A DNA stretch of 40,048 nucleotides from a virus. The stretch's first letter is position 1; each line of letters starts with the position of its first letter. The stretch covers positions 1-40,048 of the IMG/VR virus record IMGVR_UViG_3300048527_000005, one strand, 5' to 3'. This document shows positions 8,096-29,081 of this stretch, in pieces. A program made the position numbers and the translations under genes. The notes under the pieces were generated by a model. It did no database searches, was not told where the DNA came from, and saw only the letters and a list, made by a program, of their open reading frames with translations.

Positions 8096-8842
8096 TTAAG
8101 GGTAACTTTTAAAAATGTTACTTCCTACAGAAAACAGCTCTACTCTTGAAGTATTAGCATTCTCTAAATCAAATTGCATGTAATATCCTCTTGCTCCATA
8201 AGACTCAGCAGTGCTATTCTTAAGGCATAAAATATAGTCAGATATAGAAGGTATGCTACCTCCAGTTATAGTAGTATTTACAGTTATAGAGTTACCTGAT
8301 ACAGCAACAATTTCTCCGATCTTTATTATTGATCCAGAATTGTTTTTATATATCATATCCCCAACGTTTATTATACTTCCAATAGCAAAGTTAAATAGCA
8401 CTACAACGGCAGATGCGTTAGAGGAATTAACAAACGACACGTCACCTATACCCTGAGCAGACCTCATAGAAAGGTTATCATCTGAAACATATCTTCTTAT
8501 ATATCCAAAGTAATCACCCTCCTTTAATGTAAAGTATGAATTACTTATAAACCCAGAATCCATGTCGGTAATAATACTACAATTCCAAGAGTCATCACTA
8601 TTTAATGATATAGTCTTGAAGTTCTTAACCATGCCATTCTCTACATTAAAAACCCCTTTTATTCTAGAGCTATACTGAACACCATAGAAGTTATTTCTAA
8701 GATCATTGGAGTTATGTCTATATAAGTTTCCGTTTTTAAACGTGTAGAAGTATGAGTTCATACCGATCATCTTCTCTGGAATAAACGAAAAGAATGATGT
8801 CCATCCCTTTGAGTCTTCACTAAACGATAATGTATATTGCAT
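8096..8842 (-). CDS. Conserved phage tail protein, 248 aa
   Basis: It begins MQYTLSFSEDSKGWTSFFSF, followed by MIGMNSYFYTFKNGNLYRHN. I recognise this opening from a family of tail proteins in environmental Bacteroidota phages encoded beside tail stabilization proteins; the exact function is not known. The rest is beta-rich, with a mid-to-C-terminal segment (about 150-210) of short alternating strands (IIKIGEIVAVSGNSITVNTT) like a small beta-sandwich or OB-like insertion. There is no signal peptide. It follows the 170-aa gene after 12 bp of A-rich leader (AAATAAATAAATAG before ATG). A role in the tail tip or needle is inferred from position. Confidence 0.65.
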   Translation of the reverse strand: MQYTLSFSEDSKGWTSFFSFIPEKMIGMNSYFYTFKNGNLYRHNSNDLRNNFYGVQYSSRIKGVFNVENGMVKNFKTISLNSDDSWNCSIITDMDSGFISNSYFTLKEGDYFGYIRRYVSDDNLSMRSAQGIGDVSFVNSSNASAVVVLFNFAIGSIINVGDMIYKNNSGSIIKIGEIVAVSGNSITVNTTITGGSIPSISDYILCLKNSTAESYGARGYYMQFDLENANTSRVELFSVGSNIFKSYP

Positions 8843-8854
8843 CTATTTATTTAT

Positions 8855-9367
8855 TTAGTTTGATGGACATGATGGTAAGAAGCTTTGGTAGTTACCATAT
8901 ACAGTTTGACTAACATTAGTAGCAACAACTGTTCCAGATGAATTTTCAAGTAATAACTCTATAGAGAACTCGCTTCCAGAAGTTTGCGATGGTTTAAACG
9001 CAACCTCTAGATAAGAGTCTCCAGGAGTAGTTACAACTGAAAATACAAGGCCGGCAGGGTTTACAACCGTACCAGTTACAATCGTATAGTTTAAAGGTGG
9101 ATTACCAACAGATATTCTAAATCTTTTCAATACAGTATTTCCTCCGTCAGATGTGTTACAAATTGTATTTGTTATACTTATGCTAGGAACATCTGGTGGT
9201 GGTGGAGTTGAACAAGACCCAATTGTCTGTAGCAACCCATTAAACTGTCTTCTATAGTTAAAATCAAAAGAGTAATAACCATCAGGAGCCTTTGTTGTAA
9301 GAATAGAATCTGTCCATATAGCTGTTGCTGTAGAAAAATCTTGTGTATCTATATAGTATACTGCCAT
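8855..9367 (-). CDS. Tail-associated protein, 170 aa, with a C-terminal module shared with the 2227-aa tail protein
   Basis: It is made of two parts. Residues 1-52 (MAVYYIDTQDFSTATAIWTD, ending near TIGSC) resemble short N-terminal segments of phage tail proteins that attach variable C-terminal modules. After a proline linker (STPPPPDVP), residues ~62-168 are a beta-rich module beginning SISITNTICN and ending YQSFLPSC. This module is clearly homologous to three copies inside the adjacent upstream 2227-aa protein: the framework words FRIS, GDSYLEV, EFSIELLL, QTVYG and YQSFLP are shared. Each copy has a Cys near both ends. The likely role is as a tail decoration or receptor-contact protein. The leader before ATG is AAATAAATAAA-rich. 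Confidence 0.75.
   Translation of the reverse strand: MAVYYIDTQDFSTATAIWTDSILTTKAPDGYYSFDFNYRRQFNGLLQTIGSCSTPPPPDVPSISITNTICNTSDGGNTVLKRFRISVGNPPLNYTIVTGTVVNPAGLVFSVVTTPGDSYLEVAFKPSQTSGSEFSIELLLENSSGTVVATNVSQTVYGNYQSFLPSCPSN
8864..9184 (-). repeat. Module A, copy 4 (in the 170-aa gene)
   Basis: About 320 bp encoding the ~106-aa module SISITN...FLPSC. It is homologous at protein and DNA level to the three copies at 9793-10110, 10390-10710 and 10987-11304 of the neighbouring tail gene. It is the only copy outside that gene. Confidence 0.85.
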
Positions 9368-9387: not shown

Positions 9388-12300
9388 TTAACAATTTTCG
9401 TATGTTATAATTTCACCGTTACTACCTATTGCAATAGTGTTTGCAAAACCAAATCCTTCGTATCTTCTAAATTTACTTTCCCCATCAAATAGAGATGTTA
9501 ATCCTGAATCAGAATATAAGTATTGATTGCTAAAGATACTACTTTCAGATCCGTATAAAGTTAATCCCATATCTAAGAATGTACAAGCATAACTAAAATC
9601 ATAGCTAGCACTATTAGATAATGTAAACGCATAGCTTGTTGGCGGAACATAACATCCTCTAGTCTCTGTTAATGGAGGACAAGGATTTCCTCCTCCAGAA
9701 GGTTGAGTTATAATGGTTCTTGTTCTTGTCTCTACTCCATCAATACATGCTGACCAAGCTGACCAATCTGATACTACACAGTTTACTGGGTAACAACCAG
9801 GCAAGAAGCTTTGATATGTACTGTATACTGTTTGTAGTCCACTTGATCCTACAGTAATTCCAGACGGGTTCTTTAATATTAAGTCTATTGAAAACTCACC
9901 ACCATAAGTAACAGAAGGTCTAAATGTAACCTGTAAATAAGAAGATCCAGGAGTAGAGTTTATACTATATTCAAGGCCAGCAGGATTAGAAACTGTACCG
10001 GCTACAATTGTATATGTAGAAGGAGCGTTACCAATAGATATTGCAAATCTTTTTGTAATAGTACTTCCTCCATCTGTATTACATATTGTACTTCCTATTC
10101 CTATGCTTGAGCATGTTCTAGTTTCTGATAGTACCGGACAAGCAGCTCCTCCGTTAATTGCAGGGGTTACTACTGTTCTAGTTCTACTCTGTAAACCTTC
10201 TGAACAAGTTGACCAATCAGACCAAGCTGAAACAACACAGTCTACAGGACAATCTCTAGTCTCCGTTAGTGTAGGACAAGCTTGTCCACCACCTGAAGGC
10301 TGAGTTATAATAGTTCTAGTTCTGCTTTGAGTTCCACCGTTACAAGTTGACCAAGCTGACCAGTCAGAAACTACACAGTTCACCGGTGTACAAACTGGTA
10401 AGAAGCTTTGATAATCTCCATATACAGTTTGACTAACGTTAGTTCCAACCGTAGCTCCTGTTGAGTTTTTAAGTAATAATTCTATTGAGAATTCGTTACC
10501 ATAAGTTACAGCTGGTCTAAACTTAACTTGTAAGTAAGAATCACCAGGAGTAGCTACTATAGTATACTCTAATCCAGCAGGGTTAATTACAGTTCCTGCT
10601 TGAATAGTATATGTAGCAGGAGCGTCACCTATAGATATTCTAAACTTTCTCAATACTATACCTCCGCTATTCGGATCGTTACATATTGGATTTGTTATAC
10701 TGATGCTTGAGCACGTTACAGTCTCTGTTAATGTAGGGCATGCAGATCCTCCATTGTATGGTTGAGTTACAATTGTTCTAGTTCTAGTTTTAAAACCGTC
10801 GTTACATGCTGAATACGCAGACCACTCTGAAACCTCACAGTTAGCACAGTCTCTTGATTCTGATAATTCAGGGCATGGAGTTCCTCCTCCTGTAGGCTGA
10901 GTTAATATTGTACGAGTTCTAGTAGAAACGTTGTTAACACATGCAGACCATGCAGACCACTCAGACACTACACAGTTAACAGGAGTACATCCAGGCAAAA
11001 AGCTCTGATAATCACCATATACTGTTTGAGTAATATTGGTAGCTACAATGGTTCCTGTTGAGTTCTTCAATAACAATTCAATAGAGAACTCATTACCATA
11101 AGTTAGGGCCGGTTTAAATTTAACCTCTAAGAATGAATCTCCAGGAGCAGAAGATATAGAATACTCTAAGTTTGCTGGGTTTATTGTGGTACCAGCCGCA
11201 ATTGTGTAAATAGCTGGAGCATTACCAATAGATATTCTAAATCTTTTTGTAATAGTGCTTCCTCCGTCTGTATTACATATAGCGTTTGTTATACTTATAC
11301 TTGAACAAGCACGAGTTTCTGATAATGTAGGACATGGAGTACCTCCTCCAGAAGGTTCTACTATAACCGTTCTGGTTCTTGTTTGGAATCCATCGTCACA
11401 TGTTGACCAGTCTGACCAATCTGATACTTGGCAGTTAACAACTGGAACACAACTTCTTGTCTCTGATAGCACAGGACATGAATCTCCTCCTCCTGAAGGT
11501 GGAACTAGTACCGTTCTTGTTCTTGTTTGAGATCCATTAATACATTCAGACCAATCGGTCCAGTCAGATACCTGACAGTTCACCTCTGGAGCACCACAGT
11601 AACAAGCTAATTGACTACTTAAGTCATCGTAACAAAAGTCTGCTTGATATCCACAAACCCTATTCTCTGATAAGTCAGGACAAGGTGTACCTCCATTTTC
11701 AGCAGGAACTAAAACTGTTCTAGTTCTAGTTTGAATTCCATCAATGCACTCAGACCAATCAGACCAATCAGATACCTCACAGTTGATAGGTCCACAGTTG
11801 ATACAAACATCTTCACTGCTTATATCGCTGTAACATAAGTCAATTCCGTATGCATTTACTAAGTCCCAAACTAAATAAAGATACTGAAGTCTGTTCGGAT
11901 TGTTATATATAAATGAAGATTCAAATTTACCGCTAGACGGATTTATTATAGGCGTAGCTGTATTTAATAAAGGTCTTAACGTATTTATATCGGCCTCTGT
12001 ATATAATGTATCGGACACTAAATACTTAAGAGAATTAGCCTCTGGGTCAAAATCAAACGTATCCGTAATGTATTTATCAGATTGCATCTTAATGGTACTA
12101 CCAAACGCAGGTATAACACCTATAGATGCTTGACTTGTGGTAGATTGATAAAGTGATAATCCATCAGATTCTAATAGTACGAAGTCAATATTTGTAGGGC
12201 TGCTATATCCATTAAGCGCCCAGTTATAATTATTATGAGTAGTCTGTCCTTCATTTGAAGGTGAGTTAACTACAATTCTAACAACTGTTATTTCATCTGA

Positions 12301-15300
12301 TTCTATACAGTTTGAAAGTATGTTGTAAGTAGCATTTACTGGAGTTATTGTAACTAGAGCCGTTGTAGGATTTATTACATTTTTATAAAATGATATAGCT
12401 CCTGATCCAGACAAGTCCTCATCTATAACAGTTTCGCCATTATATTGTATAAGTATATGTGCTGATCCTGATTCAAAGTTATAATCAAAAGAAGCTTCTC
12501 CTATTATTTTACCATACTCCAAATTAAATACTAACTCACTATTAGAATTATCTTGAGATATTGTAAATCCACAGTCAAATGTTTCTATAGGGGCCGGTAG
12601 CTTTTCATCATTAACAGATAGTACATACTCCTTTAAATAAGGGTCGTATCCACCAATCTTTTGATTATTTAACTTGTCCTTAAAGTTATCTCTAAACCAA
12701 CCATTCATACCTAATTTAGATATAGGAATTAAGTTGTCGGATTGAGATGCTCCTCCTTTTAAATTAATAACAGATGTTCTCTTAGTATCTGTAAAGTAAA
12801 TATCCTCTCCCCATGCAGCAAAACTAGCCGCATCGTTACTAATACCAAACTCTTCAATTCTAGATATTTGAGTACCTAATACTTCAGGTATAGATGTAAT
12901 CGCACCACCTCCGGCAGCATCAGAAAGTAAATTCTTACCCGCTAATACATAGGATATCTTATCCTCTTGTAAGGTAAGCACGTCTGTTTTTCTTCCGTGA
13001 AGTATGTTAATTGGACCGAATGATTTCTCACAGTCCTTGAAGTTTGCTAGTGCTAAATTAAATTCATTTAATTTATTTACATTAGTTTCTTCATTGTATA
13101 TTCCGCTGTATGTTATTCCAGCATATCTATGCGCTTCTTTAAATTCCTCTTGAGAAACAGCAGTAACCCTGCTTCCTAAGTAAAACGGAGCTCCTGTTAA
13201 CGAGTCCCCAACCTTGTAACTTTCAACACCATTACCAAATGCAAAGCAGTCAAAGAAGTTCAAATCAACTACAGCTGGAATACCAGACGACTGATTAGTA
13301 ACATTTCCTTGATGATATCCGTTTATAATATCAAATGATTCGCTTCCTTCAAAGTAAGTCTCACCATTAGCATCAGCGGCTTCTGTTTCAAATATGATTA
13401 ATGATTCAGTTCTTTGTACTTGTATTTGACAAGACACTCTTGACTTCTTACCACTACAGTTAGGCGTACCACTCTTCATTACGAAGAATAACCTTCCGTC
13501 AGTAGTATCTTGTTGAAATTCGTATTGGTTAGTACCTGGTATGGCGTTAATATCACCTGTATAAGGACTAACTAAGTTCTTATTAAAGTCGTTTTTATTT
13601 ACCGTATCATCACCACCCGTACTATCTCCTGCTTCTAAGTTTATTTGATCCCCTATTATAAAGGTATATAAACTAGTGTAATCTTGAGATGCTGTAAACG
13701 ACTTATTAAATGTATACGTTCTATTACCACAACTGCTTACGGCAGCTTCTCTAGTTAGTTTAAAGTTAATATTTATTAAACTTCCAGCTGGTATATCGTA
13801 AGGAGCAAATTGTAATTCTCCAGGTTGTCCAAATAATGGATTATCTATATAACAAGGATAAGATAAATTAGCGTAGCTTCCAGCTTCACTTATTTCTCCC
13901 TCATCTATAAATGAGTTCTCAGTATATGCAGCCGAAAAATTAGAAGCCTTAAGCCTCATATACATTCCTGCTGGCTCTATAATATCTTGACCTGCTGAAT
14001 TCTTATTGTCTTTTATAAAGTCTCTAGGTTGTGCCTCTAATGCAAGAACCTTAGTTTTTACTAAACTATTTAATACCCCATTAGAGTCTGCCTTAACAAT
14101 AAGCGTTGAGTTTTCTTGTACCTTACTTCTATTATCTCCTTCTAATTTAAACCAAGTAAATCCTGAGTCTTCTTGAAAGAAAAGATTAGAGTATACAACC
14201 TGATACTGACTTTTTGAAGGCTTTACTACAAACTTATACTTCTTAGCCCAGCTTGGAGCTTTACTAATTATACTTGCTCTTATATAATTCTTTTTATCTG
14301 AATTATACGGAGGAATAAATACTGTATTATTTGTATCTACTAGGGCAGTTGAACTACGGTTATATTCATCCATGTATACAATAGCTACCTCATAATCCCT
14401 ATTACTATGAAGGCTCTGATTAGATCCTATAGCTGAAAAGCTAGCATAAGTATTAGTATTTGCAAGGTACTCATAAGCATATACAAATTGACCTGGAGTT
14501 GCCTCGTATCCAAACTTGATAGCTGGAATCTGAATGCTTATAATATCAGAACCTAATGTAGATGATATAGTAAATCCGCCAGTAGCGTTAGATATACCAG
14601 TTCCTATTTCACTCCATCCCGCCTTTGTAATCAACTGACAGTTAAAGAAATCTGTTAATGAAGTTCCAGAACACGCGTCAGCATATATTTTATGAGTTGA
14701 TATTGCGTCTATAAATTCTTGACTAGTAGCCAACTCATTAACGCTACTGTAATTTTTTTGAATATTAAATACTAACTCATATTCAAAATCATTTCTAGGA
14801 GGATTCGTATACGAAGCATCTCCTGAGTATGAGTCATGTTGTAAGTTTACAGTTATAGAAAGGTATGATCCACTAACTAGCGGCATACCTGTTAAATCTA
14901 TATTAAACTGAGAGTCGTTTACAGTCTTTGTACTAGATGGATCTATTGTATAGTTAACTCCGCTATTTAATGTAATAGGAAGTTCAACAAATCCTATATT
15001 CTCAGACATTAAATCTAAGTTGTAGTCAATGTCTATTTCGTTACCGTCTTCGTCTGTAATGTTGTAACCATCAACATAGTTTCCATACATTAACCTATTA
15101 CCCATGACTGTTTGAGCCTTAGCTAATCTAGGCACGTTATCAAACGTACGAAGCAGCTCGCTCTCTGTAAGGGTTGTATATATTTTTTTATTTGTAAATG
15201 TAATCTGTTCTATTTTGTTATCAGCCCACCCTTCTTGAGATTTGTTGTATTTTTCTACAACATTTATTACACTAGAGTCTGATAGTTTAAAGCAGATATC

Positions 15301-16071
15301 TACACCAACGACATTATCAGTACCAGTATTGAACTTTACATTAACAGAGTTAAATATATTCTGCATTCCTGAATTCTCAAATGTAGAATAATCAAGTCCA
15401 AATGCTCCAGGTTCAAATGCTATATCACTAAACTGAGATAAAGCACTATACTCACCATCCTTATATTTGTATCTATAAGCAAAAGATATGAACTTATCAG
15501 TCATATAATTCTCTTCCCTAGGTACAGTAAGTAATGATATTGTAGGCGCTGATGAAGGAGGAGCGACTATCACAGATATATCACTATCATCAATTTGATC
15601 TACGCCGCCTATTGGTTCGGGGTAGTTTCTATTTACGTTTATTTTTCTAGGAGGATTTAAATTATCCGTCCAGAATAGTAAGTCATCGATTAAGTTAATA
15701 CCTGTAACTAAGTACTTATGGTCAAAGTTAAGTACGTCTTCAGATACTACATGGTACTTTAGTAAGTTTTTTTCTGCATTAAATGATACTACTATATCAA
15801 CAGTAGCAGATGCTACAAGCCAGTATAGCGTTTCATTAGATCCATCCTCATATGCGCCAATACATTTAGCATCTATAAGAGAAGTTCCGTTATACTGTAA
15901 GTTAGTAAGCTTAATATTTCCCTTAGCATTTTCTACAGCCCCTACACTATTATTTTCAGTAGATCCGACTCTAATATTTAACGCGTCTACATATTCCCCA
16001 GCAGGGATTACGCGCTCATCAAAATCTTTGTTCATTCTACCGGCAATAAAATTTACATCAATATTTGCCAT
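9388..16071 (-). CDS. Giant tail stabilization-type protein (2227 aa) with eight thrombospondin type-1 repeats
   Basis: It opens MANIDVNFIAGRMNKDFDER, then VIPAGEYVDALNIRVGSTEN. This is the start I associate with the tail stabilization/tubular proteins of crAss-like and related Bacteroidota phages, which form the tail below the ring proteins. Residues 1 to ~1425 are the conserved body. Residues 1431-2140 hold eight TSP1-like repeats of the pattern CxVSxWSxWSxC...RTRT...GG..CPxLxExxxC, arranged 3-A-2-A-2-A-1, where A is a ~106-aa beta module beginning SSI and ending FLPxC. A linker of the type CYxDxSS...CG occurs twice, before repeats 1 and 2. The last ~87 residues form a separate C-terminal domain (LYSDSGLTSLFDGESKF). 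It follows the ring proteins with a 5-bp gap. The unusual length comes mostly from the repeat region. I am sure of the architecture; the receptor- or glycan-binding role is inferred from TSP1 biology. Confidence 0.85.
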   Translation of the reverse strand: MANIDVNFIAGRMNKDFDERVIPAGEYVDALNIRVGSTENNSVGAVENAKGNIKLTNLQYNGTSLIDAKCIGAYEDGSNETLYWLVASATVDIVVSFNAEKNLLKYHVVSEDVLNFDHKYLVTGINLIDDLLFWTDNLNPPRKINVNRNYPEPIGGVDQIDDSDISVIVAPPSSAPTISLLTVPREENYMTDKFISFAYRYKYKDGEYSALSQFSDIAFEPGAFGLDYSTFENSGMQNIFNSVNVKFNTGTDNVVGVDICFKLSDSSVINVVEKYNKSQEGWADNKIEQITFTNKKIYTTLTESELLRTFDNVPRLAKAQTVMGNRLMYGNYVDGYNITDEDGNEIDIDYNLDLMSENIGFVELPITLNSGVNYTIDPSSTKTVNDSQFNIDLTGMPLVSGSYLSITVNLQHDSYSGDASYTNPPRNDFEYELVFNIQKNYSSVNELATSQEFIDAISTHKIYADACSGTSLTDFFNCQLITKAGWSEIGTGISNATGGFTISSTLGSDIISIQIPAIKFGYEATPGQFVYAYEYLANTNTYASFSAIGSNQSLHSNRDYEVAIVYMDEYNRSSTALVDTNNTVFIPPYNSDKKNYIRASIISKAPSWAKKYKFVVKPSKSQYQVVYSNLFFQEDSGFTWFKLEGDNRSKVQENSTLIVKADSNGVLNSLVKTKVLALEAQPRDFIKDNKNSAGQDIIEPAGMYMRLKASNFSAAYTENSFIDEGEISEAGSYANLSYPCYIDNPLFGQPGELQFAPYDIPAGSLININFKLTREAAVSSCGNRTYTFNKSFTASQDYTSLYTFIIGDQINLEAGDSTGGDDTVNKNDFNKNLVSPYTGDINAIPGTNQYEFQQDTTDGRLFFVMKSGTPNCSGKKSRVSCQIQVQRTESLIIFETEAADANGETYFEGSESFDIINGYHQGNVTNQSSGIPAVVDLNFFDCFAFGNGVESYKVGDSLTGAPFYLGSRVTAVSQEEFKEAHRYAGITYSGIYNEETNVNKLNEFNLALANFKDCEKSFGPINILHGRKTDVLTLQEDKISYVLAGKNLLSDAAGGGAITSIPEVLGTQISRIEEFGISNDAASFAAWGEDIYFTDTKRTSVINLKGGASQSDNLIPISKLGMNGWFRDNFKDKLNNQKIGGYDPYLKEYVLSVNDEKLPAPIETFDCGFTISQDNSNSELVFNLEYGKIIGEASFDYNFESGSAHILIQYNGETVIDEDLSGSGAISFYKNVINPTTALVTITPVNATYNILSNCIESDEITVVRIVVNSPSNEGQTTHNNYNWALNGYSSPTNIDFVLLESDGLSLYQSTTSQASIGVIPAFGSTIKMQSDKYITDTFDFDPEANSLKYLVSDTLYTEADINTLRPLLNTATPIINPSSGKFESSFIYNNPNRLQYLYLVWDLVNAYGIDLCYSDISSEDVCINCGPINCEVSDWSDWSECIDGIQTRTRTVLVPAENGGTPCPDLSENRVCGYQADFCYDDLSSQLACYCGAPEVNCQVSDWTDWSECINGSQTRTRTVLVPPSGGGDSCPVLSETRSCVPVVNCQVSDWSDWSTCDDGFQTRTRTVIVEPSGGGTPCPTLSETRACSSISITNAICNTDGGSTITKRFRISIGNAPAIYTIAAGTTINPANLEYSISSAPGDSFLEVKFKPALTYGNEFSIELLLKNSTGTIVATNITQTVYGDYQSFLPGCTPVNCVVSEWSAWSACVNNVSTRTRTILTQPTGGGTPCPELSESRDCANCEVSEWSAYSACNDGFKTRTRTIVTQPYNGGSACPTLTETVTCSSISITNPICNDPNSGGIVLRKFRISIGDAPATYTIQAGTVINPAGLEYTIVATPGDSYLQVKFRPAVTYGNEFSIELLLKNSTGATVGTNVSQTVYGDYQSFLPVCTPVNCVVSDWSAWSTCNGGTQSRTRTIITQPSGGGQACPTLTETRDCPVDCVVSAWSDWSTCSEGLQSRTRTVVTPAINGGAACPVLSETRTCSSIGIGSTICNTDGGSTITKRFAISIGNAPSTYTIVAGTVSNPAGLEYSINSTPGSSYLQVTFRPSVTYGGEFSIDLILKNPSGITVGSSGLQTVYSTYQSFLPGCYPVNCVVSDWSAWSACIDGVETRTRTIITQPSGGGNPCPPLTETRGCYVPPTSYAFTLSNSASYDFSYACTFLDMGLTLYGSESSIFSNQYLYSDSGLTSLFDGESKFRRYEGFGFANTIAIGSNGEIITYENC
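9793..10110 (-). repeat. Module A, copy 3
   Basis: 318 bp encoding 106 aa from SSIGIGSTIC to YQSFLPGC. It lies between TSP1 units 7 and 8 and is the most diverged of the internal copies (SGLQTVYST in place of SQTVYGD). Confidence 0.85.
10390..10710 (-). repeat. Module A, copy 2
   Basis: 321 bp encoding 107 aa from SSISITNPIC to YQSFLPVC. It lies between TSP1 units 5 and 6 and has one extra residue in the NDPNSGG loop. Confidence 0.85.
10987..11304 (-). repeat. Module A, copy 1
   Basis: 318 bp encoding 106 aa from SSISITNAIC to YQSFLPGC. It lies between TSP1 units 3 and 4. Confidence 0.85.
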
Positions 16072-21133: not shown

Positions 21134-21832
21134 CTAGGCATAAATCATGCTTGTTTTATTAGGTCTATGCCCTGTTAAATAATTATTAAGGGTAGACCTA
21201 ATCATGTTGTGAGCTTTAGCTGCATCAGCTATGCATCCATAGTATATTCCGGTTTGTGTGTTTAAAATTATTTTAGCTTTATAGTTTTTTTCTCCAGAAA
21301 TGCTTTTGCTTCTCTTTAATAAACACTCCTTAGATAATTTTCTTCCAGTTAAAGCTTTTGATATTTTATCTCTTCTTTCTTTAGAAAACACAGTTCCTTT
21401 ATTACTTTCTGATATTTTAAGTCTTGTCTGTATTGATACAGGCCTACCTATCAATCCTTTCTTTATTTTTTGTATAGCCTCTTCAGTATGCTTAAATCCT
21501 TTTACTGAATTAGAAATTCTAGCCTTCATTTCGTCAGATATAACTTTTCTTGAATCGTTTGAGTTTGTTAAAAGACAATTCAATCCCTTTTTACCTATAC
21601 ATTCATATCTATCTTGCCAATATCTTTCCTTTTGGTTTAATTGATCTTTATCGCATTCTTCTATAACTTCAAAAACATGGTTATCCCATCCGTATTTTTT
21701 AATAGAACTATATAACCTTACTTGTAATTTACAACTACAACTTGCGTATTTTTTAATTCTATTTTCTATATTAACACTCTGTCCGACATATACCTTACCT
21801 GAAGGAGATGTTATTTTGTATATACCTATCAT
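21134..21832 (-). CDS. GIY-YIG homing endonuclease with NUMOD repeats, 232 aa
   Basis: The N-terminal GIY-YIG nuclease domain is complete: GIYKI at 3-7, YVG at 15-17, Arg25 and the catalytic Glu69 in QKERYWQ. Residues ~110-180 contain three NUMOD3-like DNA-binding repeats (GFKHTEEAIQKI, GRPVSIQTRLKISE, GRKLSKECLLKRS). The last ~45 residues (AKIILNTQTGIYYGC through NNYLTGHRP) form a NUMOD1-like helix-turn-helix module. It is a free-standing gene wedged between portal and scaffold genes in an otherwise tightly packed head operon, with its own TATATTTG box. It should cut phages lacking the insertion near this site and spread by recombination. Both flanking genes look intact. Confidence 0.9.
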   Translation of the reverse strand: MIGIYKITSPSGKVYVGQSVNIENRIKKYASCSCKLQVRLYSSIKKYGWDNHVFEVIEECDKDQLNQKERYWQDRYECIGKKGLNCLLTNSNDSRKVISDEMKARISNSVKGFKHTEEAIQKIKKGLIGRPVSIQTRLKISESNKGTVFSKERRDKISKALTGRKLSKECLLKRSKSISGEKNYKAKIILNTQTGIYYGCIADAAKAHNMIRSTLNNYLTGHRPNKTSMIYA

Positions 21833-28490: not shown

Positions 28491-29081
28491 TTAAGCGTAA
28501 ATATAAATAGTTTTATTTTTTCTTGTTCCAGACAAATATCTTGCCATATTTCTGTGATTTAAATTGTATAAATCAGTTAATTCTTTTAAGCAGTTGTAAA
28601 AAACTCCTGTTTGAGTATCTAATACAATTTTAGCTTTTTTTGATTTATCTCCTTTTTGAGCTTCAGACATTTTTTTTCTTGATTCAATAGATGCTTTTCT
28701 TCCGTAATTTGGATGATCCTTACCTTTTTTGTAACTAGAAGCTCTTAATATTTTAATTCTTTCAATTGTCTCTTTAGAATATTTATATCCTTTTGAACTT
28801 ACTGCGTTTTTATTGAGATTACAACATTTTTCATCATCAAAAAATAAATCTAAATAATGTTGTTCTCTAGAATCCAAATCTTCGTACGAACATTCTTCTA
28901 ATATTTCAAATAACGGCATACCATGCTTATTATATACATTTTGAATAAATCCGCTTTTATTTTTATTTTTAAGCATTAAGTACTTGTGTCTATTAAAACG
29001 ATTTTGAATGTCAATAGACTGACCTATATAAAAATATCCAGATTCTTCCCATTTCAATTTGTATATACCTAACTTTTTCAT
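28491..29081 (-). CDS. GIY-YIG homing endonuclease inserted beside a small virion gene, 196 aa
   Basis: A complete GIY-YIG domain: GIY at 5-7, YIG at 18-20, Arg28 and catalytic Glu73 in SREQHYL. NUMOD3-like repeats follow (GYKYSKETIERIKILRA, GRKASIESRKKMSEAQKG), then a NUMOD1-like C-terminal module (AKIVLDTQTGVFYNC, ARYLSGTRKNKT) clearly related to that of the other endonuclease in the window. Its ATG overlaps the TGA of a 19-codon ORF (ATGA), and a second copy of that ORF's 5' end begins 12 bp after its stop. It therefore looks inserted into the 5' part of the 107-aa gene. It has no promoter box of its own, so expression should depend on the fibre operon. Confidence 0.9.
   Translation of the reverse strand: MKKLGIYKLKWEESGYFYIGQSIDIQNRFNRHKYLMLKNKNKSGFIQNVYNKHGMPLFEILEECSYEDLDSREQHYLDLFFDDEKCCNLNKNAVSSKGYKYSKETIERIKILRASSYKKGKDHPNYGRKASIESRKKMSEAQKGDKSKKAKIVLDTQTGVFYNCLKELTDLYNLNHRNMARYLSGTRKNKTIYIYA

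What the first reader, a model, noticed from the sequence alone, without database searches (positions are those of the whole stretch)
9388..16071. Eight thrombospondin type-1 repeats in a phage tail protein, interleaved with a second repeated module
The conserved tail body (to about residue 1425) is followed by eight TSP1 units and three ~106-aa A modules in the order T-T-T-A-T-T-A-T-T-A-T. TSP1 units are best known from animal and parasite surface proteins that bind glycans. Here each keeps the WSxWS core and four Cys. Module A is beta-rich with Cys near both ends. The array could be an adhesion or receptor-binding stalk, much as BACON domains are proposed for crAssphage. Disulfides would have to form after lysis, so the array might stiffen only outside the cell.
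Basis: partly seen in the sequence, partly recalled or inferred. Interest (0 to 1): 0.85.

Follow-up and report, generated by a model that had tools for sequence, protein, structure and literature searches.

The report
Thrombospondin-repeat array on phage tail tip
A phage related to crAssphage carries, on the protein that probably forms its tail tip, a long chain of eight thrombospondin-type repeats and three immunoglobulin-like domains, and related phages swap, add and lose these pieces, which suggests an exchangeable arm for gripping the host cell.

Summary
ORF 9388-16071 (minus strand, 2227 aa) ends in eight TSP1 units and three ~110-aa A modules in the stated order. Pfam finds eight TSP1_spondin domains (E 1.2e-100); a predicted model places T units on solved TSP1 repeats. 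A is a predicted Ig-like sandwich. The body is most likely the crassvirus muzzle, the tail-tip gate: residues 335-945 align collinearly with phicrAss001 gp44 316-946 (Z 8.7). Relatives show a variable C-terminal slot behind the muzzle: TSP1-bearing ones have 1 to 11 T units, but most carry none. In some phages the neighbouring gene holds T where the window has A. Modules and end domains have moved between muzzles only ~38% identical; one sister fuses TSP1 to a VWA domain. Best reading: adhesive arms on the tail tip, repeats as spacer and weak binder, a faster-changing tip as specific binder. Binding, exposure and disulfides are inferred, not shown, and the phage also has tail-fibre-like genes. 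New variant of a known kind (compare BACON arrays); one phage TSP1 protein was already auto-annotated.

The parts
9388..16071 (-). muzzle-type (tail-tip) protein with C-terminal TSP1/A array, 2227 aa
   Evidence: (phrog_14478, E 3.6e-274)
13237..15069 (-). residues 335-945: IG2/crass-fold region of the muzzle
   Evidence: AF2 model aligned to phicrAss001 muzzle 7qok_A residues 316-946, Z 8.7, rmsd 4.8 A over 208
12298..12591 (-). residues 1161-1258: beta-sandwich like SIDT extracellular and collagen-binding/PPC domains
   Evidence: VIA Z up to 10.8, 2.1-2.9 A over 83-97 residues in nearly all listed rows
11782..11835 (-). residues 1413-1430: Cys-rich motif that closes the conserved body
   Evidence: a motif of this form lies near the body end in 72 of 82 further muzzle relatives
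11653..11781 (-). TSP1 unit T1
11578..11652 (-). 25-residue Cys-rich linker between T1 and T2
11449..11577 (-). TSP1 unit T2
11305..11433 (-). TSP1 unit T3
   Evidence: modelled
10975..11304 (-). A module 1, predicted Ig-like
10846..10974 (-). TSP1 unit T4
   Evidence: modelled
10711..10839 (-). TSP1 unit T5
   Evidence: modelled
10378..10710 (-). A module 2
10249..10377 (-). TSP1 unit T6
10111..10239 (-). TSP1 unit T7
9781..10110 (-). A module 3
9652..9780 (-). TSP1 unit T8
9391..9651 (-). residues 2141-2227: C-terminal cap, candidate tip
   Evidence: 60% identical to the L012 cap where bodies are ~90% identical; weak match to domains of a Flavobacterium LRR protein, L128
8855..9367 (-). next gene, 170 aa: ~60-aa N-terminal domain (ND) followed by a fourth A module (8864-9187)
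   Evidence: the same gene carries a TSP1 unit instead in L018, L019, L026, L028, L030
8096..8842 (-). 248-aa protein matching PF25729 crAss_MUZ_C, a muzzle C-terminal domain that here lies on its own gene
   Evidence: 46.5 bits, cut-off 27, E 5.1e-12

Best explanation
The protein is a crassvirus-type muzzle whose C-terminus carries a modular adhesion arm. In the virion the muzzle would be a hexamer, as in phicrAss001, so six arms would hang from the tail tip. TSP1 and Ig-like A modules, each probably braced by its own cysteines, act as a semi-rigid spacer with weak repeated binding. The terminal cap, and perhaps the small next-gene protein built from the same modules, makes the specific contact with the envelope or capsule of a Bacteroidota host. 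Recombination between repeats changes arm length; recombination between phages swaps modules and tips. Shown: TSP1 sequence and predicted fold, variable slot, different repeat numbers, module exchange, purifying selection. Supported but moderate: muzzle identity. Inferred: surface exposure, hexamer arms, disulfide state, host binding.
For: TSP1 profile matches. Fold model: T parts pLDDT mostly 85-94; Foldseek best hit thrombospondin-1 repeats, probability 1.00; VIA rmsd 1.1-2.6 A over 42-50 residues to TSP1, C8, C9, UNC5 and MIC2 repeats in most TSP1 rows. Muzzle: phrog_14478, 7qok_A collinear alignment. T units on muzzles: window 8, L011 8, L012 11, L026 10, L030 10, L027 6 (contig end), L019 4, L014 2, L016 2, L032 1, L049 1. 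Slot length behind the body in the 74 of 82 further relatives that are uncut and aligned to the end: 31 within 40 residues, 34 with 41-160, 9 with more, up to 448. Exchange: L049 and L018 end domains 83% identical over 138 residues, bodies 37%; L012 A2 is 85% identical to L026 A2 (bodies 38%) but at most 69% to the window's in-array A modules (bodies about 90%). Window against L012: body blocks 82-98%, T1-T5 block 76%, cap 60%, though T8 is 84%. dN/dS window/L012: body 0.07, T1-T5 0.14. Cys: the third Cys of six-Cys units is in 0 of 103 phage units at that spacing, and in 13 of 13 bacterial units outside Flavobacterium and L139; A modules have both end Cys or neither. Hosts of named relatives: Flavobacterium, Cellulophaga, Tenacibaculum, Maribacter; a Flavobacterium MAG contig has the muzzle body near an ND-TSP1 gene (L137).
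Against: No binding, virion or structure experiment exists for this phage. Tail-fibre-like genes exist, so host recognition may lie there. The muzzle match is moderate (Z 8.7, 208 residues, rank 28 of the VIA list), the plain Foldseek top 50 did not show it, the sequence profile of the body found no credible PDB relative, and the expected propeller part modelled poorly. Z for T and A matches is 5-6, under the level at which a fold match alone is convincing. Where the C-terminus sits on the virion is unknown. TSP1 is rare in the group: 1 of the 82 further muzzle relatives, so such an arm is not needed by this kind of phage. The higher divergence of cap and repeats could be relaxed constraint: array dN/dS is twice the body's but far below 1, and the last T unit (84%) breaks a simple outward gradient.
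Confidence: 0.58

Rival explanations
1. Pure spacer: T and A units bind nothing and only hold the terminal cap (or let the tail tip reach) across the capsule; the number of units sets reach.
For: Unit number varies while W6, both R of the RTR core, the four Cys and GG stay invariant in the window units. Different end domains sit behind near-identical T units in sister phages, VWA in L032 and another domain in L049, bodies 91% identical. PMC10172136 (passages) suggests that the long tail barrel helps the muzzle to reach through a ~30 nm capsule.
Against: TSP1 units also occur singly in the small gene and as short arrays in other phage proteins, where a spacer is less needed.
Confidence: 0.25
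2. Environmental adhesin: the array binds particles, algal polysaccharide or mucus where hosts live, not the host cell itself.
For: Modular Ig-like proteins of gut phages confer epithelial binding when displayed on another phage (PMC13370021, abstract and passages). TSP1-like proteins also occur in viruses of algae (rows).
Against: The array sits on a tail-tip type protein rather than the head; the cap weakly resembles domains of a Flavobacterium LRR protein.
Confidence: 0.1
3. A relaxed tail-tip extension: recombination adds and removes domains at a tolerant C-terminus with no particular function.
For: 31 of 74 uncut relatives have no extension beyond 40 residues.
Against: dN/dS 0.14 over T1-T5, all 32 Cys of the eight window T units present, an open frame over ~800 residues, T units in three muzzle lineages and several other proteins.
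Confidence: 0.07

Closest known systems
BACON tandem arrays of crAss-like phage tail proteins (PMC6949934, abstract and passages seen)
   Same: Up to eight tandem beta domains in tail-associated proteins of crAss-like phages; evolved by internal duplication and horizontal transfer; binding proposed, not shown.
   Different: BACON is an Ig-like domain; here TSP1 plus a predicted Ig-like module in an interleaved order, fused to the muzzle-type protein, and shared with the adjacent gene.
phicrAss001 muzzle gp44 (PDB 7qok; PMC10172136, passages seen)
   Same: Predicted IG2/crass-fold region aligns collinearly.
   Different: The window protein continues with a PPC-like sandwich, a further beta region, the T/A array and a cap; the Pfam muzzle C-terminal domain matches a separate gene.
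Animal and apicomplexan TSP1 repeats (thrombospondin-1, complement C8/C9, UNC5, MIC2)
   Same: Predicted fold and profile; tandem repeats. MIC2 pairs VWA with TSP1 (recalled), as the sister phage L032 does.
   Different: Four Cys instead of six; the O-fucosylation context CxxS/TC (recalled) is absent because the third Cys is missing.
Auto-annotated phage TSP1 protein A0A6J5N7M8 (uncultured Caudovirales phage), best BFVD hit
   Same: TSP1 repeats in a tailed phage; E 3.3e-10 to the T-A-T-T model.
   Different: A 275-aa fragment whose genome context was not examined here.

Membership tests
TSP1 domain (Pfam PF19028/PF00090) | Match over the curated profile cut-off | tested here: met
   8 of 8 units over the PF19028 cut-off; whole protein E 1.2e-100
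TSP1 domain (Pfam PF19028/PF00090) | TSP1 fold with Trp-Arg core | tested here: met
   Predicted model only: Foldseek first hit 1lsl, probability 1.00, E 1.5e-3; VIA rmsd 1.1-2.6 A over 42-50 residues, Z 5-6; W6, R19 and R21 invariant in the eight units
TSP1 domain (Pfam PF19028/PF00090) | Glycan or protein binding (usual role, recalled) | not testable with these tools
   needs purified protein
canonical six-Cys TSP1 subtype | Six Cys in three disulfides | tested here: not met
   Four Cys per unit; third Cys missing in 0 of 103 exceptions. The units are filed as a four-Cys TSP1 variant, not as this subtype
crassvirus muzzle protein | IG2 / crass-fold region | tested here: met
   7qok_A Z 8.7, rmsd 4.8 A over 208 residues, collinear; moderate score
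crassvirus muzzle protein | Seven-bladed propeller with ring-joining domain | tested here: inconclusive
   N-terminal 225 residues not modelled; expected propeller part below pLDDT 50
crassvirus muzzle protein | Hexamer at the tail tip | not testable with these tools
   needs cryo-EM
BACON array | Match to a BACON profile | tested here: not met
   Pfam scan of the whole protein at E<=0.1 listed only the two TSP1 families
Ig-like domain (A module) | Ig-type beta-sandwich | tested here: inconclusive
   Predicted model, pLDDT blocks 50-80; rmsd 3.1-3.9 A over 78-94 residues, Z about 5; no Pfam match for the A-bearing 170-aa protein

The most novel reading that the evidence does not exclude
The C-terminus of the muzzle is a dedicated exchange slot of a large phage group: behind a conserved Cys motif, phages plug in and swap TSP1, Ig-like, VWA and other tips, and share the same cassettes with the next gene, so that a tail-tip gate is coupled directly to an interchangeable, disulfide-braced receptor arm built like the TSP1+VWA adhesins of apicomplexans. 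Binding at the arm would pull on the muzzle and open the gate.
Probability: 0.3. Interest if true: 0.78.

Novelty: new variant of a known kind. Interest (0 to 1): 0.58.

Why it matters
How crassviruses sense the host and open the muzzle gate is open; the phicrAss001 paper proposes contact by the crass domain (PMC10172136, passages). A natural series of relatives with 1 to 11 TSP1 units, and with swapped ends behind 91% identical bodies (L032 and L049), makes the receptor and reach questions testable. It also shows TSP1, best known from animals, as an exchangeable part among bacterial viruses.

Tried and rejected
Chance repeat: rejected by E 1.2e-100 and eight places over cut-off. Assembly artefact of one contig: unlikely, given L011 and more distant relatives with the same kind of layout. 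Recent capture of a gene common in the host family: not supported; PF19028 rings in 1 of 397 sampled genomes of the family of F. cheongpyeongense, the seed itself. But two more Flavobacterium genomes outside that sample do have it (G002, G003), so it is rare, not absent. Array in deposited phage records: tblastn found none among 50,697 at E<=1e-3 (low-complexity filter on). Body against PDB by sequence: nothing credible. Foldseek on the body: top 50 mostly large multi-domain proteins with low TM-scores, the muzzle not among them; the VIA second look showed it at rank 28, behind single-domain matches of the PPC-like domain. NCBIfam: nothing for the three window proteins given. PHROGs: nothing for most of the other TSP1-bearing phage proteins tried (5 of 8 without a match). 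Full-text searches for thrombospondin or TSP1 with phage or prokaryote terms: no title or abstract start on TSP1 in phages among those listed (20 of 28, 20 of 182, 0, 1, 3, 1 and 0 papers); unlisted papers, subscription journals and preprints are untested.

Corrections: two junctions were counted as loop-Cys by a loose pattern, and the total was 50; with a stricter pattern and stricter removal of duplicates gives 47 junctions, 14 of 14 against 0 of 33. In one search the 'near C' flag for L026 and L030 A1 counts the first Cys of the next T; in the printed sequence both module Cys are missing there. One search stopped with a division by zero at the window/L011 body comparison, so no dN/dS is given for that pair.

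Rows dropped: L046 and L047 are the same contigs as L011 and L012 and were left out of counts; L041 was left out of the junction counts; L140 lies in the same contig as L128. The 13 bacterial units leave out L139 and the three Flavobacterium loci (4 of 17 units). Of the 82 slot lengths, 8 that were cut or not aligned to the end are left out of the 74. Two 103-set units (first unit of L022, and L038) have an extra Cys two residues after the second Cys, in an insertion; they do not count as the third Cys.

Full report
OBSERVATION. The finding's coordinates hold one minus-strand ORF of 2227 aa. Pfam gives eight TSP1_spondin stretches with E 1.2e-100 and seven TSP_1 stretches with E 1.7e-30; all eight places pass the family cut-off at DNA level, while 0 of 14 control genomes ring. 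Units begin at residues 1431, 1499, 1547, 1700, 1745, 1899, 1945 and 2098, each with four Cys at the same spacing.

WHAT THE UNITS ARE. A model of T3-A1-T4-T5 from ten aligned segments has mean pLDDT 78; ten-residue blocks are mostly 85-94 in the T parts and 50-80 in A. Foldseek against the PDB puts human thrombospondin-1 repeats first (1lsl, E 1.5e-3, probability 1.00; no hit at E<=1e-3). VIA-align places T units on TSP1, complement C8/C9, UNC5 and MIC2 repeats, in most TSP1 rows at rmsd 1.1-2.6 A over 42-50 residues, Z 5-6; two TSP1 rows are far worse because they span several units. The A module matches Ig-type sandwiches at rmsd 3.1-3.9 A over 78-94 residues, Z about 5 (one row 14 A), a common arrangement and not proof of a family. 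By the tool's own note, Z under 8 alone is weak; for T the profile evidence carries the claim. A profile of the eight T units finds complement C7/C8, R-spondin-2, MIC2 and UNC5B sequences in the PDB, best E 3.2e-06.

WHAT CARRIES THEM. The body matches phrog_14478, a virion structural protein, over residues 7-1457. Among 89 phage records with a match the best is MW202828.1 at 40%; 83 of the 89 are Flavobacterium or Cellulophaga phages. A model of residues 226-1425 (31 rows, mean pLDDT 70.9, expected propeller part poor) aligns residues 335-945 to phicrAss001 muzzle 7qok_A residues 316-946, Z 8.7, rmsd 4.8 A over 208 residues, rank 28. This is moderate but collinear, and it is the only listed row with over 100 aligned residues; nearly all others match one domain at residues 1161-1258 (SIDT and PPC/collagen-binding-like sandwich, Z up to 10.8). 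Terminase, portal, other structural proteins and tail-fibre-like proteins lie upstream. The portal is 71.6% identical to that of MW202828.1 and 28-49% in the other listed rows, from Flavobacterium, Cellulophaga and Tenacibaculum phages (25 of 87 records listed). The Pfam crassvirus muzzle C-terminal domain PF25729 lies on a separate 248-aa gene, two genes downstream.

RELATIVES. A T-unit scan of IMG/VR gave 35 loci. TSP1 units sit on the muzzle in nine of them (L011, L012, L014, L016, L019, L026, L027, L030, L032) and in L049 of the body scan. Unit numbers: window 8, L011 8, L012 11, L026 and L030 10, L027 6 (contig end), L019 4, L014 and L016 2, L032 and L049 1. Among all loci examined, A modules were found only in the window, L011, L012, L026, L027 and L030. 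Thirteen loci carry T units on another protein with an MYPN start. A Cys-rich motif closes the body in 72 of 82. In the 74 that are uncut and aligned to the end, the slot behind the body is at most 40 residues in 31, 41-160 in 34 and longer in 9, up to 448.

MODULE EXCHANGE. The next gene is a ~60-residue ND domain plus one further module. That module is A in the window, L011 and L012, and T in L018, L019, L026, L028 and L030; L014, L016 and L032 have neither. ND-type domains also occur inside muzzle ORFs, for example L050, L057, L058, L061-L063. L049 and L018 share an end domain 83% identical over 138 residues while their bodies are 37% identical. L012 A2 is 85% identical to L026 A2 (bodies 38%) but at most 69% to the in-array A modules of the window (bodies about 90%). 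L032 and L049, with bodies 91% identical, have different ends: L032 a VWA domain (PF00092, 26.3 bits against cut-off 23.8), L049 the domain shared with L018. This is horizontal module exchange plus change of repeat number. Between the window and L012 the cap is 60% identical, the T1-T5 block 76%, the last T 84% and body blocks 82-98%. dN/dS is 0.07 in the body and 0.14 in T1-T5.

CYSTEINES. Of 103 distinct phage units 69 have four Cys, the rest one to seven. The third Cys of the six-Cys type is present at its spacing in 0 of 103 phage units and in 13 of 13 units from bacteria other than Flavobacterium and L139; the three Flavobacterium units and L139 lack it. The window units also have no sixth Cys of their own. 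If the recalled group-2 pattern (1-4, 2-5, 3-6) applies, one whole disulfide was lost. In eight loci with MYPN-type arrays (L013, L015, L017, L020, L021, L022, L025, L031), a second Cys at the end of one T unit always goes with a loop Cys in the next: 14 of 14 against 0 of 33 junctions without it, and 1 of 65 units that do not follow a T (related sequences, so not independent). This predicts an inter-repeat disulfide there, not in the window. A modules have both end Cys (11 distinct) or neither (L026 and L030 A1, near-identical) (with the correction in Tried and rejected). Such pairing favours disulfides in the mature particle; phicrAss001 virions do contain disulfides (PMC10172136, passages). 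None was measured here.

MECHANISM. Most likely the array is an adhesive arm of the tail tip. By analogy with the gp44 hexamer (PMC10172136, passages), six arms; at about 5 nm per TSP1 unit and 4 nm per Ig domain (recalled sizes), some 50 nm if extended, comparable with the ~30 nm capsule mentioned in that paper. The repeats would give reach and stiffness with weak multivalent binding; the cap would give specificity. This is inference. Against it, the phage has tail-fibre-like genes, most relatives lack the array, and no binding has been measured.

HOST. Named relatives infect Flavobacteriia-type hosts (Flavobacterium, Cellulophaga, Tenacibaculum, Maribacter). A Flavobacterium MAG contig holds the muzzle body and an ND-TSP1-like gene (L137); MAG binning of phage contigs can err. 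In F. cheongpyeongense an LRR protein carries a four-Cys TSP1 unit and domains weakly like the window's cap (phmmer 1.8e-07 against that one protein, 24-28% identity). PF19028 rings in none of the other 396 sampled genomes of that family, though two further Flavobacterium genomes have it.

NOVELTY. TSP1 in a phage is not itself new: UniProt has an auto-annotated example. Tandem tail domains in crAss-like phages are known for BACON (PMC6949934, abstract and passages), and modular Ig-like adhesins for gut phages (PMC13370021, abstract and passages). Not seen in the listings searched is an interleaved TSP1/Ig array fused to the muzzle, sharing cassettes with the next gene and exchanged between distant muzzles.

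Noticed in passing
L013, L015, L017, L020, L021, L022, L025, L031: TSP1 arrays on MYPN-type phage proteins show co-occurrence of a second terminal Cys in one unit with a loop Cys in the next (14 of 14 against 0 of 33 junctions): a predicted inter-repeat disulfide.
   Followed up: partly
L032 9860-10930: A sister muzzle ends in TSP1 plus a VWA domain with an apparent metal-site motif, the domain pair of apicomplexan adhesins (recalled).
   Followed up: partly
window 8096-8842: The Pfam crassvirus muzzle C-terminal domain lies on a separate gene here, with the ND-A gene between it and the muzzle body.
   Followed up: no
window 21134-21832 and 28491-29081: Two proteins matching homing-endonuclease PHROGs (one PHROG named GIY-YIG) within the structural gene region.
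   Followed up: no
window residues 1161-1258 (12298-12591): SIDT/PPC/collagen-binding-like sandwich in the muzzle-type protein, between the expected propeller region and the array.
   Followed up: partly
L128 2407-6411: Flavobacterium cheongpyeongense LRR protein with a four-Cys TSP1 unit and cap-like modules: possible cellular source or counterpart of the phage modules.
   Followed up: partly
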